Shown here in pieces: positions 9,528 to 60,824 of a stretch of DNA of 64,000 bases. This DNA is from Prochlorococcus sp. AG-409-B05 (lineage in GTDB: Bacteria > Cyanobacteriota > Cyanobacteriia > PCC-6307 > Cyanobiaceae). The position numbers and the translations under genes are program-made. Position 1 is the stretch's first letter. Every line of letters begins with the position of its first letter. The notes under the pieces are model-generated. The model was not told the origin of the DNA. It saw only the letters and a list, made by a program, of their open reading frames with translations, and did not search any database. The stretch lies in contig QCJK01000005.1 in NCBI GenBank assembly GCA_003216075.1, positions 1 to 64,000 on the forward strand, in the 5' to 3' direction.

Positions 9528-9604
9528 AACCGCTGCTATCAAAATAAAAATGCACTTAATCTTACTAATTAAATGCGTTTTTCTACCATGTCCATCATGA
9601 TGCT

Positions 9605-9934
9605 TTGAAGTTTGTGACGCCACTTCTTATAAACAGCCTGCCTGTGATCCAGTTATTTCTAGGAACAGCCTTGGCAATATCGACTCTTGCATTCTTAATG
9701 AGAATTATTCTCACCTGGTACCCTCAGGTCAACCGCAAGAAAGGCATATGGCTCATCTTGACCTTTGGTACCGAACCTTTCCTATCAATAACAAGAAAAT
9801 TGATCCCTCCAATCGGAGGAGTCGATGTGACGCCAGTGATCTGGGTTGGTCTAATTAGTCTCTTGCGAGAATTATTAGTTGGATCTCAAGGCCTTTTATC
9901 TCTAATAATTCTTAAAAATCACACATTAGGCTAA
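9605..9934 (+). CDS. YggT family membrane protein
   Basis: A 109-residue integral membrane protein with two hydrophobic helices separated by a conserved loop (MRIILTWYPQVN, then TEPFLSITRKLIPPIGGVDVTPV). This is the YggT/YlmG/Ycf19 pattern, whose members influence nucleoid and thylakoid or cell-division organisation in cyanobacteria and plastids. The likely start is TTG at 9605; the in-frame GTG at 9614 is an alternative. The gene is convergent with accC and divergent from psbX. Confidence 0.88.
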   Translation: MKFVTPLLINSLPVIQLFLGTALAISTLAFLMRIILTWYPQVNRKKGIWLILTFGTEPFLSITRKLIPPIGGVDVTPVIWVGLISLLRELLVGSQGLLSLIILKNHTLG

Positions 9935-9971
9935 TAAACTAAATAGTGATTCCTAAATTTAACTTTAAAAA

Positions 9972-11318
9972 TTAACCTAATATTTCCTCTTCCACAAACT
10001 TTGTATGCACATCACCTCTTAAAAATTCATCACGATTTAATAAATAAAGATGGAAATCAATAGTAGTTGGAATTCCTGTAACTGCACATTCATTTAAGGC
10101 CCGTTTCATTCTTTTCAAGGCAACTTCACGATTGTCACCCCAAACAATCACTTTACCTATCAGGGAATCATAAAAAGGAGGTATATCGTAACCTGTATAG
10201 ACATGACTATCTACTCTGACCCCAGGTCCTCCAGGAGGTAACCACCCAGTAATTCTGCCAGGAGATGGACGAAAATTATGAGAAGAATCTTCCGCATTAA
10301 TTCGACATTCTATTGCATGTCCTCTCAATTGAATATCATCTTGAGTCACACTTATCGGATCACCACCTGCAATACGCAATTGTTCAGCTATTAAATCAAT
10401 TCCAGTTACCATTTCTGTTACAGGGTGCTCTACTTGAATTCGAGTATTCATCTCCATGAAATAAAAATTACCTTCACGATCAAGCAAGAACTCCACCGTT
10501 CCAGCTCCTTCATATTTAATACTCTTAGCAGCTGACACTGCTGCCTCCCCCATCCGAAGCCTTAATTCAGAATCCAGAGCAGGACTAGGTGATTCCTCCA
10601 ACAACTTCTGATGCCGACGTTGTATAGAACAATCTCTTTCACCTAAATGAACAACATTGCCATATCGATCAGCTAGGACCTGTACTTCTACATGTCTAGG
10701 GCGATCAATAAATTTTTCCATATAAAGGCCTGCATTACCAAATGCAGCTTCAGCTTCCCCTTGAGCAGCTTTAAACAGTTTCTCTAACTGATCTTCTCTA
10801 GTTACTAAACGCATACCTCTTCCACCACCACCAGCCGTTGCTTTGATCATTACTGGATAACCCATATCACTAGCCAAGACTGCCGCCTCATCAGGGCCAG
10901 GCAACAATCCCTCACTACCAGGAACAGTTGGTACACCAACTTTCTGCATAGTTGCTTTTGCTGTCGACTTATCTCCCATCGAACGAATTGCATGAGGCGA
11001 AGGACCCACAAAAATAATTCCGTGATCTCTACACATTTCTGCAAAACGATCATTCTCTGCAAGAAATCCATATCCAGGATGAATTGCATCAACACCTCTG
11101 GATGTAGCAGCGGCAAGAATATTTGGAACATTCAAATAACTTTTGCTGCTGGGCGCATCTCCAACACAAACGGCTTCATCTGCAAGCTGAACATGCAGAG
11201 CATTGCGATCAACTGTGCTGTAAACCGCAACTGTGGCAATACCTAACTCCCTACAGCTCCGCAGAATCCGTAGAGCAATCTCGCCACGATTGGCTATCAA
11301 GACTTTGCCTATAGGCAT
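9972..11318 (-). CDS. accC: Acetyl-CoA carboxylase, biotin carboxylase subunit
   Basis: ATP-grasp enzyme that carboxylates the biotin of AccB in the first step of fatty-acid synthesis. The 448 residues match the family length. Visible motifs are the start [18 protein letters not shown], the glycine-rich ATP loop [10 protein letters not shown] and [14 protein letters not shown] near the active site. It stands alone, without accB next to it, as is usual in cyanobacteria. The 5' side faces the tRNA-Leu gene across 123 bases that should hold its promoter. Confidence 0.97.
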
Positions 11319-20987: not shown

Positions 20988-21074
20988 TAGAAATAAATAA
21001 ATTCATCCAAAAAATAAGGGTTGTGGATGAACTCCCTCAAGACTGCAAGAATGCTGTTGTCCATTTTCATATGG

Positions 21075-21340
21075 ACTAGGTGATCCACACCAATGTTTCG
21101 GACAGCGGTTCGATTCCGCTCAGCTCCACTCAATAAAAGACTTGGGGCTGCAATGGTTTCGACGGGACATCAGGAGGGTGACTGAAGCCTGCTCGGTAAG
21201 AGCAAATCCGTAACAGCGAACAAAATCGTTCGTTTCTCCCGTCAAACAGCCCCTGTTGCTGCTTGACCCTAATAAGGGAGATGGGGTGAAGTCAGCCTTA
21301 TCACCCAAATGACTCATGGGGACTGGAAGGTCCCCCTAAT
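21075..21340 (+). ncRNA. ssrA: Circularly permuted two-piece tmRNA
   Basis: Rescues stalled ribosomes. The 3' acceptor half comes first: TTTCGGAC, the T arm AGCGG-TTCGATT-CCGCT (21104-21120), and CAGCTCC plus discriminator A ending at 21128. A 15-base linker follows, then the coding half beginning GGGGCTG at 21144, which pairs with CAGCTCC to rebuild the acceptor stem. The tag frame at 21216-21266 codes ANKIVRFSRQTAPVAA and a stop, typical of marine picocyanobacteria. A GGGGAC/GTCCCC hairpin at 21318-21335 lies near the 3' end. Outer limits are approximate. Processing must remove the linker; CCA is not encoded. Confidence 0.93.
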
Positions 21341-21473
21341 TTAAAGACAAAAAGATAGGCATACGCAAGGCAGCTCGCCATCCAAGTTTTTCAATAGGTG
21401 TTGCACCTGCACAGATTCACTTGACCTCACATACCCAGTTACGTAAGATTGTTTTCTCGAATTAACCTCCTGC

Positions 21474-55065: not shown

Positions 55066-55645
55066 CCAGCCCTAATATCCCAAGAAGTTGAAAAACCTAA
55101 CTTAAAGCAATTAAACCACAATTCAACTCTATTCTCAATCAGTAGAAAGATAAGGTTTATAAACAAAAAGAACACAAAAATCGCATCGATCAATTCCAAA
55201 AAAATCTGAACAAGTAAACCTAAATGGGATCAACAAATTCACAAGAGTTAAAACAATAAACTAGTCAATTCAGTATTGACCAAATTTTGAGCAGTCAAAT
55301 TTATGTCATCCTTTATTACCACTCAATAGTACTTGTAAAAAAAATCAAGTGACTGACTGGGTTATTTGAATTAATTACAGCACGCTGAAGTGACGGTGAT
55401 GTGTATCTCTAAACTGTTACGATTACATTACCTAATTTTCACGTTGAAGTGCGTTTTCGAATGAATGACTGCGTTTTATCCTACTGGACTATTCCCTCGC
55501 AATAAATCGATAAAAATATTTGAGTCTTAAAGACATTTCTACAGCATATTTTTCTCACATATAATTTTATTAACTTAAATAATTATCAACCCATTCTTCA
55601 CAGAAAGTATCCTATTTTAATGACAAAAATGCTGAGGAATGTCAG
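55066..55645. other. Intergenic region with the outer guaA-end repeats
   Basis: The first 250 bases hold no recognised feature. From 55315 to 55503 lies a complete 189-bp repeat unit bounded by two copies of a guaA-end-like core. The rest is AT-rich leader for the lipoprotein gene at 55646. Confidence 0.6.
55315..55503. repeat. Empty repeat unit of the guaA-end array
   Basis: A 189-bp unit without a gene. It begins with ATTACCACTCAAT and ends with ATTCCCTCGCAAT, both variants of the guaA 3'-end core ATTCCCACTCAAT. Inside are GACGGTGATG, TATCTCTAAACTGTTAC and TTTTCACGTTGAAGTG. These align with the sequence directly downstream of guaA at 57871-57960 at clearly more than half of the bases by eye. 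Confidence 0.7.
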
Positions 55646-55972
55646 ATGCGCAAAATCAATTTATTACCTCTCTTAAATATCTGCTTGTGCGGATGTTCTT
55701 CAATCGACAAAGAATGGATAAAAGAAAGTATGCAAAAAAGTGTTGATAAATGCAATGGGAAAGTGACTAGCATTACTATGGTCAAAGAAGGAGCATTCAG
55801 CAATAAATTCAATGGATATGTTGCGATCAAAGTTCAGGGAAAAACATACTACCCTGACATCAATGCATTATCAGACGGAGAAACATCATTTTATAGATCA
55901 ACAAAAGATGTGTGTCAGATGATAAAAATGGAAAATGAAGTAAATAATATACAGAGAAATCTTCGATGGTAA
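55646..55972 (+). CDS. Small probable lipoprotein in repeat unit 2
   Basis: A 108-residue protein. The N-terminus has a short hydrophobic segment ending in LCGC, a lipobox, so it is probably lipid-anchored in the envelope. The mature part has four cysteines in total and two predicted short beta segments (GKVTSITMVKEG, GYVAIKVQGKTYYPD). No named family. It lies between guaA-end-like repeat cores, on the opposite strand to the nuclease gene of the next unit, and is its unit's only gene. Confidence 0.6.
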   Translation: MRKINLLPLLNICLCGCSSIDKEWIKESMQKSVDKCNGKVTSITMVKEGAFSNKFNGYVAIKVQGKTYYPDINALSDGETSFYRSTKDVCQMIKMENEVNNIQRNLRW

Positions 55973-56079: not shown

Positions 56080-56161
56080 ATAAAAGCTATAGTTAAGGTG
56101 ACGTGACTTTTTAAGTGAGTGATTAATTGCGTTCTCTATGTGAGAACTATTCCCACTCAAT
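56080..56161. repeat. Right arm of repeat unit 2 with guaA-end core
   Basis: GTGAC..ACTTTTTAAGTGAGTGATTA, TTGCGTTCTCTATGTGAGAA and then ATTCCCACTCAATAGTCCC. This matches the bases immediately downstream of guaA (57950-58008). Read on the minus strand the last part codes SGTIEWE and a stop, the same final residues as guaA. Confidence 0.7.
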
Positions 56162-56250
56162 AGTCCCAGATTTAAAAGTGCAGTGAGTGACTTAGGTTTT
56201 CACCTTCATTATAACGCGGTGAAGTGACGGTGAAGTAGATGGCAATTACC
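56149..56250. repeat. Left arm of repeat unit 1
   Basis: Begins with the core ATTCCCACTCAATAGT and aligns with the left part of the empty unit at 55315-55420. Two adjacent iteron-like motifs (CGCGGTGAAGT at 56215 and GACGGTGAAGT at 56226) lie just before the nuclease gene stop. Confidence 0.65.
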
Positions 56251-56251
56251 C

Positions 56252-57775
56252 CTAAACATCATTTCTGCAACTAGGGCATAACAAAGAAGAGTCTTTTTTA
56301 GTTCTTTTATTAATCATCTCTTCCCATTCATGTGAATTATCATCAGGACACACCCACCAAACAATCGATTTACTTTGATTAGATATCTCTGCAGGTGTTC
56401 GCCCAACATTTTTTAATGGGTGCCACTGTTTGGCAATATGAGGTGATTTTGCTTCTAATGAGTTCTCATAAGTAACCCATTTTCCACTGCAATAAGGACA
56501 CCCGCTACTCCTTCCCGTTCTATTGCAAATACTTGCCTCCCATTCATGGGCAGCATTAGAAGAACACTGCCACCAGACTTTGTAATTACTTTGAGAAGCA
56601 AAATGTCGCGGAGTTAATGGATAATTCATTTCTGGATGCCATTCCTTCGCTACATCTGGGAACATTATTTCCAGTGAATTACTAGGATGAGGAGAAGGAA
56701 GAAGGTTTACATATTCACGAAATACTTTTTCTTGCAAAAATGTTGTGCGTTTTAAATAGTTCTGAATATCAAGCAAAAGAACTCTTTTCTCCAAGAAAAA
56801 CATATTTTGGATTGCAATTAATAATCTATTCACATCATCCTTCAAGACTTCCTCTCCATCCACGCAAATATCAATACTATCAAGTGGTTGCAGAGGTTTT
56901 TCTCTAAGTCTTATCAAATGAATACCTATTTCCTTGAGATACTTATTTTTCTGCAAATCCTCATATACTCTTTTCTGATGAAAATACTGCCCATCATATT
57001 CAATTCCAAGATTGATATCAGGTAAAAAAATATCAATCTCCTTACCATCTATTTGATGCCTAGATTTTACGCTCTTAAATATCGCTTCTAATTCTGATAG
57101 AAAGCGCATCTCTGGCACTGAAGACTGCTGAGAGCAATGAGGGCAACCTGAGGAACTTCCTGTTCTACTTCCAACTGCAACCAACCAAACATGTTGACTA
57201 AATCTTTGACATTGCCACCATACTTTTTTTTGACTCTTGTTAGTTAAATCATTTGGAGTTAAATCACCATTTTTAATGGGATGCCATTCCTTTGCAATTT
57301 CAGGTGAAAGAGTTGCTAAGGAGTTTTCAGGAGCGACTCTTTTGCCAGCACAATATGGACAACCTCTACCTTTTCCATTCCCTTCTGTTCTAGAAGCAAT
57401 CTGTGCTTCCCATTCATGGGCATCACTAACAGAACACTGCCACCAAACTTTCTTTCTATTTCCAAGAGTGACGTCATAAGGCGTGAGTTTTCCATTCTTG
57501 GTTGGATGCCATTCCTTCGCGATTGCAGGTGAAAGAGTTGCTAAACAATTGTCATCACAAACTTTCTTGCCAGCACAATATGGACAACCTCTACCTTTTC
57601 CATTCCCTTCTGTTCTAGAAGCAATCTGTGCTTCCCATTCATGGGCATTACTAACAGAGCACTGCCACCAAACCTTTTCACTACTCTTATTAGCAACATC
57701 AGAGGGAGTCAGGTTGCCATTTTTAGTCTTATGCCATTGAGCAGCAATATTGGGTGAAAATTCCGCCAAGGACAT
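56252..57775 (-). CDS. Five zinc-ribbon repeats with internal Vsr/DUF559-like nuclease domain
   Basis: A 507-residue protein. Zinc-ribbon repeats of the DUF4379 type lie at about 4-68, 79-143, 153-215, 368-430 and 441-504. Each has Cys-x5-His then CxxC (C39/H45/C64/C67 and equivalents) and the pattern EWHPxKNGxLTP...VWWQC. Residues 220-325 form a different domain, KEIDIFLPDINLGIEYDG with D248, E259 and D261, then H266 and KEIGIHLIRLRE. This fits the very-short-patch-repair/DUF559 endonuclease fold. DNA cleavage near a specific target is inferred. Repeats 1 and 2 share an exact stretch of about 80 bases, a recent duplication. It lies inside a guaA-end-bounded unit. Confidence 0.82.
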   Translation of the reverse strand: MSLAEFSPNIAAQWHKTKNGNLTPSDVANKSSEKVWWQCSVSNAHEWEAQIASRTEGNGKGRGCPYCAGKKVCDDNCLATLSPAIAKEWHPTKNGKLTPYDVTLGNRKKVWWQCSVSDAHEWEAQIASRTEGNGKGRGCPYCAGKRVAPENSLATLSPEIAKEWHPIKNGDLTPNDLTNKSQKKVWWQCQRFSQHVWLVAVGSRTGSSSGCPHCSQQSSVPEMRFLSELEAIFKSVKSRHQIDGKEIDIFLPDINLGIEYDGQYFHQKRVYEDLQKNKYLKEIGIHLIRLREKPLQPLDSIDICVDGEEVLKDDVNRLLIAIQNMFFLEKRVLLLDIQNYLKRTTFLQEKVFREYVNLLPSPHPSNSLEIMFPDVAKEWHPEMNYPLTPRHFASQSNYKVWWQCSSNAAHEWEASICNRTGRSSGCPYCSGKWVTYENSLEAKSPHIAKQWHPLKNVGRTPAEISNQSKSIVWWVCPDDNSHEWEEMINKRTKKDSSLLCPSCRNDV

Positions 57776-57861
57776 TTATAAATCCACCAAAACGGATATC
57801 TTTTTCACAATAACGGAGGTGTAGAGAAAACCTCTTTCTACGATTTCTCCTAAGAGAAGGT

Positions 57862-58006
57862 GACAAAGTGTCACGGTGAAGTTGCGGTGAAGTCATATCT
57901 CTAAATTGTTGCTATTACGTCACCTGATTTTCACGTTGAACTCACGGTGAAGTGTCTTTTTGAGTGTCTGATTACGTTCTCTATATGTTACTTATTCCCA
58001 CTCAAT
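57862..58006. repeat. Right arm of unit 1 running into guaA
   Basis: Contains TCACGGTGAAGT at 57871, TGCGGTGAAGT at 57883 and TCACGGTGAAGTG at 57942. The array's inner core ATTCCCACTCAAT at 57994-58006 is part of the guaA coding end. A GTGAC/GTCAC hairpin lies at 57860-57874. The same order occurs in the empty unit and in unit 2. Confidence 0.7.
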
Positions 58007-59578
58007 CGTGCCAGGAGGCTTACTCGTAATATCATAAACAACTCGATTAACTCCCTTAACCTCATTAACAATTCGATTGGAAATTCTTTGAAGAATCTCA
58101 TAAGGGATATGTGACCAATCAGCTGTCATTCCATCCTCACTAGAGACGCAACGCAAAACAATGGGCCATGCATATGTTCTCTGATCACCCATTACACCGA
58201 CAGAACAAACGGGTAACAAAACTGCAAAAGCTTGCCAAATAGAATGGTATAAGCCTGCCTTGCTAATTTCCTCACGCACAATCAAATCAGCATCACGCAA
58301 ACAATTTAATTTTTGATTAGTTACCTCTCCAAGAATACGAATAGCTAATCCAGGGCCAGGAAAAGGATGTCTGCTAACGATTTCTTCAGGCAAGCCCAAA
58401 GATCTTCCAACCTTTCTGACCTCATCCTTAAATAAGCGTCTTAAAGGCTCTACTAACTTAAATTGAAGGTCCTTTGGCAGTCCTCCAACATTGTGGTGAC
58501 TTTTGATTTTAACTGCAACGCGTTCACCAGTCTTTGAGTCTATATTTGTTCCCGCACTTTCAATGACATCTGGATATAGAGTGCCCTGAGCAAGATAATC
58601 AAATGGACCCAAACGTGCACTTTCTTCTTCAAAAACTCTGATAAATTCAGTGCCAATAATTTTCCTTTTTTGTTCCGGGTCAGTAATACCTTTTAATTTA
58701 GAAATGAATCTTTCACGTGCATTTATATACTCAACATGAATATGAAATTTTTGATGAAAAAAATTCATCAGAAACTCTGGCTCTCCTTTTCTCATAAAAC
58801 CTTGATCAATAAACATGCATGTCAATTGATTCCCAATTGCCTTTTGTAATAAAAAAGCAAGAGTTGATGAGTCAACACCACCTGACAACGCAAGCAATAC
58901 CTTTTTTTTACCTACTTTTAACCGAACTTGTTTGATGGCTTCATCAATAAAAACCGTAGTAGTCCAATCTGGTTCACAGCCACAAATATTATAAACAAAA
59001 TTTCTGATCATTATCATTCCATGCTTCGAATGAACAACCTCTGGGTGAAATTGAACCCCATAAAATCTTCGATCATGTGAAGCTATTGCTGCTTCAAAAG
59101 TGTTATCAGTATGAGCTAAGCGTACAAAACCAAAAGGAAGAGATTTGACCGCATCCCCATGACTCATCCACATAGTTGATCCATCCTCAACATTTGTTAG
59201 CAATGCAGTCGGATCATCCAAATGTAATGGGGCTTGGCCATATTCAGCCTTTCCAGAAGCAACCTCAACACACCCCCCCAATTGATGGACCATGAGCTGC
59301 ATGCCATAACAAACTCCAAGAACAGGAATGCCTAAATTCCAAATCTCCTTATCACAGATAGGGGCTCCATCGGCATATACCGAACTAGGACCTCCACTAA
59401 GAATGATCCCTTTAGGCGAGATTGACCGCAATTCTTCAGCTGAAGTGGTGTAACTCATTACCAAGGAATAAACCTCTGTTTCTCTTATTCGACGGGCGAT
59501 CAACTCGGAATACTGCGATCCAAAATCAAGAATGACAATGGCTGGTTTCCGTGGAGCATCGAACTGTGAGTCACTCAT
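57992..59578 (-). CDS. guaA: GMP synthase (glutamine-hydrolysing)
   Basis: Aminates XMP to GMP using glutamine. The N-terminal class I amidotransferase has the catalytic cysteine in GVCYGMQLM and histidine and glutamate in HPEVVHSK. The ATP-pyrophosphatase part has the P-loop [10 protein letters not shown]. The C-terminal dimer domain ends [14 protein letters not shown] 59578 ([11 protein letters not shown]) is preferred to the TTG-like upstream extension to 59656, which would overlap cbiD; it gives 528 residues, the family norm. The 3' end is copied in the neighbouring repeats. Confidence 0.97.
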
Positions 59579-59639
59579 ATGTCTAAAAAAACTTGTGCGA
59601 AGACATCTCAGAACATTCAGAGTAGATAAAAATTGATAA

Positions 59640-60824
59640 TTAGTCCTCCAAAGCAATTCCTAAAGCATCGACCTGTCGCAAACCGATTGGACCTGCCCAT
59701 CGCAAACTGCGCTGACGATCAAAGAAAACAGCACCGATCTTCATGGGCCAATTTCCATATCGTTGAATATAAGATTGACTACGTGTTTCAACAGTGGCAG
59801 CAATTTTAAACCATAAGCTCCTAGCAATTTCTGGATGCTTAGCATCCAAAACAATAAAGGCTTCCTCAACAGATTTTGCCTTAGAGATGGCTTGAATCAA
59901 ACTAATAGGCAATCCTTCGTTTACCGCAAGTGCTGCCAATATCTCCATTCGGCCATCGGCTAAATGATGATGAGTATGAAATATGCCACCAGCAAGTTTA
60001 ACTAATTTCCCGTGATATCCAAAAACAAGCAACTCTTGAACACCCTTCTCAGCAGCTGCTACCAAAACAGGCCCCAACCAATTTCCCGTTTTCAACAATG
60101 ATTTCGCTGGAACTCCTCTTTTACGAGCTAATTCGAAACCATTTTCACCTAAAACTACAGTTAATCGGCCGGAGAAGCTGGAATCTGAACAATAAATATC
60201 CAACTCTTCCAAAACTTCGTTCAACTTCTCAGGCGAAGCACTAATCTGAGCCTCTGCTGTCGTTCCAATCAAAGCCAATCCATCAACCACACCAAATGCC
60301 TGATTAGAAGTTCTACACGCCAATTCCTTCCCTCTTGGAAAGATTATTTCCAACTTCAAAATGCAATGGGTTGGAACTAATTTACGAAGATTAATTTCTA
60401 ACAACTCACGAGCAAAAGCTGAAATACAAAGTTCATCAGTTCCCTCAAATTTACCCACTCCATGACCTGGTACCAACTGCAGCCAATCAACAGAGCGATC
60501 AATATCAACTGACTCAGATCTTTGTACCTGCTCTAGACATTGAACAAATGTCCATATTTCCATCCCTCGAGTTAGGTCAAGTCCCAATCCAGAATCGCAA
60601 TGACTAATACCTATCGCTTGCTTCCCTCCATCCATTAAGACAACAGAACTAACAGGCACCAACAAGGATTTATCTTGGTCAGACAGTTCAATCAATTGTT
60701 GATCAAAAAAAGGCCGACCTAATAATGCTTCTAAAGCAGCACGGGCAGCAGCAGCAACCCATACAGGCAAAGTCAAGCCTTTTCTTGGGGTGTCCAAAGA
60801 GTCTCTAATAAAACGATCTGACAA
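59640..60824 (-). CDS. cbiD: Cobalt-precorrin-5B C1-methyltransferase
   Basis: Methylates C1 of the corrin ring in the anaerobic vitamin B12 pathway. The 394 residues match CbiD in length, and [18 protein letters not shown] and [19 protein letters not shown] are family stretches. The start is TTG at 60824. It lies upstream of guaA with 61 bases between, so both may be co-transcribed, a typical arrangement in picocyanobacteria. Confidence 0.9.

What the first reader, a model, noticed from the sequence alone, without database searches (positions are those of the whole stretch)
56252..57775. Zinc-ribbon array wrapped around a Vsr/DUF559-like nuclease inside a repeat unit
Three zinc ribbons precede and two follow a domain with D248, E259 and D261 in a PD-(D/E)xK-like arrangement. 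All five Cys-x5-His-CxxC sets are intact, so the protein is probably functional. Ribbons could read the DNA while the nuclease cuts it, which would make the gene a homing-type endonuclease that drives spread of its unit into the guaA end.
Basis: partly seen in the sequence, partly recalled or inferred. Interest (0 to 1): 0.75.

Follow-up and report, generated by a model that had tools for sequence, protein, structure and literature searches.

The report
Nuclease cargo in guaA-end integration array
The gene encodes a DNA-cutting enzyme with a homing-endonuclease-type core between zinc-binding modules, but it sits in a small DNA unit that most likely entered the end of the guaA gene through an ordinary site-specific integrase, at a site where many related bacteria stack similar small units with different cargo genes.

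Summary
Window 56252-57775 (minus) encodes 507 aa with five intact DUF4379 zinc modules, three before and two after a nuclease domain. That domain is best matched by the catalytic domain of homing endonuclease I-Bth0305I (EDxHD type): profile E 4.7e-9 to PDB 3r3p, which is also the top fold hit of a pLDDT-88 model. D248 and E259 are invariant and D261 nearly so in 46 sequences.

Homing of the unit into guaA is not supported. The 21-nt guaA 3' end is duplicated in 19 of 151 family genomes, around units with mostly unrelated cargo (TPR proteins, restriction systems, HNH proteins, this nuclease). A tyrosine-integrase family sits directly behind guaA ends. Units carry paired 9-10-nt repeats inside both ends that match within a unit (0 of 20,000 permutations). 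The window unit has five ACTTCACCG copies, all at its two ends. Its left end is 84-86% identical to TPR-gene units elsewhere. No other nuclease homologue found lies at guaA.

Best reading: an integrase-less element flanked by att sites, inserted by a guaA-specific tyrosine integrase, with the nuclease as cargo, perhaps acting against foreign DNA. New variant of a known kind.

The parts
56252..57775 (-). CDS, 507 aa: three DUF4379 zinc modules, Vsr/EDxHD-type nuclease domain, two DUF4379 zinc modules
57575..57661 (-). Zn set 1 (residues 39-67)
57350..57436 (-). Zn set 2 (residues 114-142)
57134..57211 (-). Zn set 3 (residues 189-214)
56876..57130 (-). Nuclease domain (residues about 216-300), I-Bth0305I-like; E222, E246, D248, E259, D261, H266, K276 conserved
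56489..56566 (-). Zn set 4 (residues 404-429)
56267..56350 (-). Zn set 5 (residues 476-503)
57992..59656 (-). guaA (GMP synthase), intact, ends ...PPGTIEWE (start codon as listed mechanically; likely start nearer 59578)
57992..58012 (-). guaA 3' end GGCACGATTGAGTGGGAATAA: att-like core on the guaA side
57945..57953 (-). arm-type repeat ACTTCACCG, left end
57874..57893 (-). paired arm-type repeats ACTTCACCG-CA-ACTTCACCG, left end (11-nt spacing)
56217..56236 (-). paired arm-type repeats ACTTCACCG-TC-ACTTCACCG, right end (11-nt spacing)
56147..56167 (-). second copy of the guaA 3' end, GGGACTATTGAGTGGGAATAG: far core of the nuclease unit and start of the next unit
56147..58012 (-). the nuclease unit as a whole, core to core
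55646..55972 (+). 108-aa ORF, only gene found in the next (834-nt) unit
55313..55333 (-). third copy of the guaA 3' end (2 mismatches), distal end of the array

Best explanation
The unit 56147-58012 is an integrase-less (decayed or non-autonomous) integrative element stacked at the 3' end of guaA, whose last about 20 nt serve as the attachment core. A guaA-specific tyrosine integrase, not found in this genome draft but present next to guaA in relatives, would have recombined the element's core with guaA, restoring the gene and leaving a core copy at the far side. The paired ACTTCACCG repeats at both ends would be its arm-type binding sites. The nuclease gene is cargo: an EDxHD/Hef-type DNA endonuclease with DUF4379 zinc modules as the likely DNA-binding part. 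Shown: domain architecture, conserved active-site residues, att-like copies, end repeats, same ends with different cargo in other genomes, integrase family at guaA. Inferred: that the integrase binds those repeats, that the unit can move in trans, and that the nuclease acts on foreign or rival DNA (defence or competition) rather than on guaA (this last step about 0.45; the stated confidence is for the mobility and fold part).
For: Extra guaA 3'-end copies in 19 of 151 family genomes, 11 genera, backward control 0. Units between copies carry unrelated cargo. G011 has an 8.8-kb element with Tyr integrase, Rep-like protein, DUF5906-like protein and resolvase between guaA ends. In 300 genomes, all nine matches of at least 36% identity covering about half or more of that integrase (query included) lie just behind a guaA end; of eight distant recombinases read, none does. 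End repeats match within units: mean 13.2 against 8.8 +/- 0.5 permuted, 0 of 20,000. ACTTCACCG occurs 5 times in 64 kb, all at the two unit ends, the only 9-mer so clustered. Left end 84-86% identical to TPR-gene units of G013 and G078 with unrelated cargo. Nuclease: PDB 3r3p, profile E 4.7e-9, and top fold hit.
Against: No guaA-type integrase was found in the own genome, which is 91% complete in 52 contigs, so mobility today is unproven. 18 of 43 units, among them the next unit in this window, show end matches no better than permuted pairs (scores below 10), which fits decay but weakens generality. The defence role of the nuclease rests on context only (type III restriction-modification, MrcB_N-HNH and type I methyltransferase units at the same site); PADLOC gives no solid match for it.
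Confidence: 0.8

Rival explanations
1. Homing: the zinc-module nuclease recognises and cuts the guaA 3' end of unit-free genomes, and repair from an occupied chromosome copies the unit in.
For: The nuclease domain is of a homing-endonuclease family; phage relatives are annotated Hef-like homing endonucleases and one (AR9) lies between the pieces of an interrupted RNA polymerase gene.
Against: Most guaA units carry no nuclease, and none other carries this one. The homologues read elsewhere are not next to guaA. Integrase genes and integrase-type end repeats explain the site and the core duplication.
Confidence: 0.08
2. The unit moves by integrase, but the nuclease is a selfish passenger of phage origin that homes or excludes rivals at a target elsewhere (for example in a phage or another island).
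For: Closest solved relative is a phage-type homing enzyme; many phage relatives; long modular DNA-binding regions are typical of such enzymes (PMC3943268).
Against: No candidate target known; no cyanophage named among the phage hits listed; DUF4379 arrays also occur on large plasmids and fused to a helicase.
Confidence: 0.3
3. The repeats arose by simple tandem duplication or unequal exchange at guaA without a site-specific integrase.
For: Tandem repeats can arise that way; some 140-200-nt units contain only the ends.
Against: Copies share only the last about 20 nt of guaA, not the sequence before it; unit contents are unrelated; matching end repeats and an adjacent integrase family.
Confidence: 0.04
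4. The conserved tyrosine recombinase of about 390 aa found in nearly all genomes of the family moves the units in trans.
For: It is the only PF00589 protein found in the own genome.
Against: Matches in 143 of 151 family genomes, with or without guaA arrays, so it looks like a core gene; the guaA-linked integrases form a separate family that it was not matched by.
Confidence: 0.08

Closest known systems
GIsul2 and its integrase-less CR2-sul2 unit (guaA 3' end, core GAGTGGGA; PMC9376610)
   Same: Tyrosine integrase recombining the guaA 3' end at the same GAGTGGGA core; an integrase-less unit bounded by two att sites that the island's integrase can excise and insert.
   Different: Different hosts and cargo; here many small units are stacked, with unit-specific paired end repeats; movement not shown.
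CIMEs and tandem accretion of integrative elements (PMC5704250)
   Same: Elements that kept attL and attR but lost integration genes, stacked at one gene end.
   Different: Units here are very small (mostly 0.7-3 kb), and units with the same ends carry different cargo, which decay alone does not explain simply.
Tycheposons of Prochlorococcus
   Same: Tyrosine-recombinase cargo elements, probably in related organisms (second-hand from PMC10872708; original paper not held).
   Different: Described at tRNA genes and 4-200 kb long; here the site is a protein gene end and units are tiny.
I-Bth0305I (EDxHD) and phage Hef-like homing endonucleases
   Same: Catalytic fold and conserved residues; modular DNA-binding regions.
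   Different: DUF4379 modules on both sides of the core; gene not in an intron and not linked to its own target as far as can be seen.

Membership tests
EDxHD homing endonucleases (I-Bth0305I) | catalytic domain homologous to I-Bth0305I | tested here: met
   profile E 4.7e-9 to 3r3p; 3r3p is the top Foldseek hit, prob 1.00, TM 0.59 by target length, though E only 2.9e-3
EDxHD homing endonucleases (I-Bth0305I) | conserved active-site residues | tested here: inconclusive
   D248, E259, G262 invariant and D261, K276 at least 90% in 46 sequences; E222, E246, H266 invariant in 8; a residue-by-residue match to the published EDxHD motif was not made
EDxHD homing endonucleases (I-Bth0305I) | insertion of its own gene at the site it cuts | tested here: inconclusive
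   the site is explained by integrase att sites; cutting is not testable here
DUF559 / MTES_1575 nuclease families (Pfam) | score above the curated cut-off | tested here: not met
   MTES_1575 25.1 against 38.2 and DUF559 16.5 against 20.6 bits
Vsr mismatch endonuclease | match to the Vsr family model | tested here: not met
   no Vsr model among the Pfam or NCBIfam matches
DUF4379 (PF14311) | score above the curated cut-off, Cys/His ligands | tested here: met
   310.8 bits against 24.5, five copies, ligands intact
Integrative element at the guaA 3' end | direct repeats of the guaA core at both ends | tested here: met
   57992-58012 and 56147-56167
Integrative element at the guaA 3' end | arm-type repeats inside both ends | tested here: met
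   five ACTTCACCG at the two ends only; whole-set permutation 0 of 20,000
Integrative element at the guaA 3' end | own integrase gene | tested here: not met
   the unit holds only the nuclease ORF; no guaA-type integrase in the 91% complete genome; hence called integrase-less, CIME-like
Integrative element at the guaA 3' end | excision and integration observed | not testable with these tools
   needs PCR for circles or an in vitro assay
Known anti-phage defence system | PADLOC model match | tested here: not met
   full protein none; the domain alone only weak matches, best E 2.8e-4 to part of DpdF

The most novel reading that the evidence does not exclude
The guaA end of these bacteria works as a cassette platform: small units with standard, interchangeable ends (att core plus paired arm repeats) are captured, stacked and exchanged in trans by visiting guaA-specific integrases, so that cargo such as this nuclease, restriction systems and TPR enzymes is swapped between strains much as integron cassettes are, but by a different recombination system.
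Probability: 0.3. Interest if true: 0.75.

Novelty: new variant of a known kind. Interest (0 to 1): 0.55.

Why it matters
If the genome is a marine picocyanobacterium, as I infer, it belongs to a group with small genomes in which the exchange of single genes is not well explained. A gene end at which many genera stack small units with matching ends and changing cargo, next to a dedicated integrase family, gives a concrete and testable route. The nuclease adds an uncharacterised architecture (zinc modules on both sides of a homing-type core) to that cargo. I found no description of guaA arrays in these organisms in the held open-access library, which is not proof that none exists.

Tried and rejected
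Homing into guaA as the driver of the unit: rejected as main explanation (see rivals). The full-length structure model with 7 sequences gave confident zinc modules but no nuclease fold at 216-349 (pLDDT below 50), probably because only one relative in that alignment covered the domain; a domain model on 46 sequences, mostly viral, solved this. A scan of viral contigs with the full protein found no relative, and an alignment of 8 diverse domains was too variable to search with. PADLOC gave nothing firm. The core recombinase of about 390 aa was considered as the mobilising enzyme and set aside.

Full report
What is there. The ORF at 56252-57775 (minus) codes for 507 aa. Five DUF4379 modules match with E 1.2e-94, and all five Cys-x5-His...CxxC sets are intact, three before and two after the central domain. 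The full-length AlphaFold model shows the modules with high confidence, and they resemble DUF4379 proteins of trypanosome mitoribosomes. Known structures of this module are therefore nucleic-acid-associated; that it binds DNA here is inferred.

The nuclease. An eight-sequence profile of residues 205-335 finds PDB 3r3p, the catalytic domain of homing endonuclease I-Bth0305I, with E 4.7e-9, and 3hrl with E 0.004. A model built on 46 sequences has mean pLDDT 88 and a helix-strand-strand-strand-helix-helix-strand core; its best structural match is again 3r3p (prob 1.00, TM 0.59 by target, E 2.9e-3). D248, E259 and G262 are invariant, D261 and K276 nearly so. Pfam matches to MTES_1575 and DUF559 stay below their cut-offs. 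PHROG matches are to phage homing/HNH endonuclease families; phage relatives include Hef71 and an AR9 protein between the pieces of an interrupted RNA polymerase gene.

Where it sits. Besides the guaA end itself, the degenerate 21-nt pattern of the guaA 3' end recurs at 56147-56167 and, with two mismatches, at 55313-55333. The same happens in 19 of 151 family genomes from 11 genera, with up to four exact copies per genome, while the pattern read backwards finds nothing. Copies share the guaA core and not the sequence before it. Between copies lie mostly one or two genes of changing kind. By reading the sequences: TPR proteins (several with sulfotransferase- or methyltransferase-like parts) and acyltransferase-like membrane proteins. 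By family search: an MrcB_N-HNH protein, an HNH_2 protein, a type III restriction-modification pair, and a type I methyltransferase beside a helicase-like protein.

Who put it there. In G011 an 8.8-kb stretch between guaA ends holds a 462-aa tyrosine integrase, a Rep-like protein, a DUF5906-like protein and a serine resolvase. Searching 300 family genomes with that integrase, all nine matches of at least 36% identity covering about half or more of it (eight of them full length or nearly so, the query included) lie directly behind the end of guaA. Of three shorter listed fragments, two follow a guaA-type core (one with two mismatches); the third (G085) has none within the stretch read, though it lies on the same contig about 17 kb beyond guaA. 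None of eight distant recombinases follows one. This ties an integrase family to the site. GIsul2 is an experimental precedent: it integrates at GAGTGGGA in guaA, and its integrase also moves an integrase-less unit bounded by att sites (PMC9376610).

The ends of the units. Just inside both core copies many units carry a pair of 9-10-nt direct repeats, about 11 nt apart, of unit-specific sequence. Comparing left and right ends of 43 units of at least 500 nt, the match within a unit averages 13.2 against 8.8 +/- 0.5 for permuted pairs, with 0 of 20,000 permutations as high; 18 of the 43 score no better than permuted pairs. In the window, ACTTCACCG occurs five times in 64 kb (expected about 0.2 over both strands), three at the left and two at the right end of the nuclease unit, and it is the only 9-mer so clustered. 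The left 150 nt of this unit are 84-86% identical to those of TPR-gene units in two other genera (G013, G078), the right end 66-70%, while the cargo proteins are unrelated. Same ends with different cargo is what a shared integration system predicts, and not what nuclease homing predicts.

What the nuclease does. Not shown. The nuclease domain is absent at guaA from 299 other family genomes. Relatives with the same two domain types occur on plasmids, in phages and in scattered bacteria, and those whose neighbourhoods were read have no guaA beside them. Defence or competition is suggested by the company of restriction genes at the same site and by a DUF4379 array fused to a helicase-like protein 34% identical to that of a guaA unit; a phage-derived selfish role elsewhere remains open. 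I put defence or competition at about 0.45.

Limits. The own genome is 91% complete and in 52 contigs, so a missing integrase may be an assembly gap. Many compared genomes are drafts. The 3r3p fold match is modest by E-value and leans on the sequence profile. Movement and cleavage are untested. The original tycheposon paper was not in the library; statements on it come from PMC10872708.

Noticed in passing
L068 (G011 contig C9), integrase at 9591-10979 minus: A candidate autonomous guaA element: Tyr integrase, Rep-like protein, DUF5906-like protein and serine resolvase between guaA ends.
   Followed up: partly
L061, L068, L081, L099: Units of 140-200 nt that hold only the two ends and no gene of 90 aa or more between guaA cores.
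   Followed up: partly
L065 18873-19682 and L066 10729-11862: Two DUF4379 arrays run off contig ends in the own genome and may be one gene split by assembly; the C-terminal domain after the array resembles an ORF in the guaA array of G157 (L085).
   Followed up: no
L071 6694-11462: A type III restriction-modification pair in a 7.5-kb unit at guaA in G193.
   Followed up: partly
L020 561-2645: DUF4379 modules fused to a helicase-like protein 34% identical to that of a guaA unit in G055.
   Followed up: partly
55646-55972: 108-aa ORF, sole gene of the neighbouring unit, weak match to the MchS3 family (E 0.0085), far below cut-off.
   Followed up: no
L132 787-3109: In a Lactobacillus kefiranofaciens plasmid a tyrosine recombinase gene lies directly before a relative of the nuclease.
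   Followed up: no
21039-21357: tmRNA gene reported by ARAGORN with tag ANKIVRFSRQTAPVAA.
   Followed up: no
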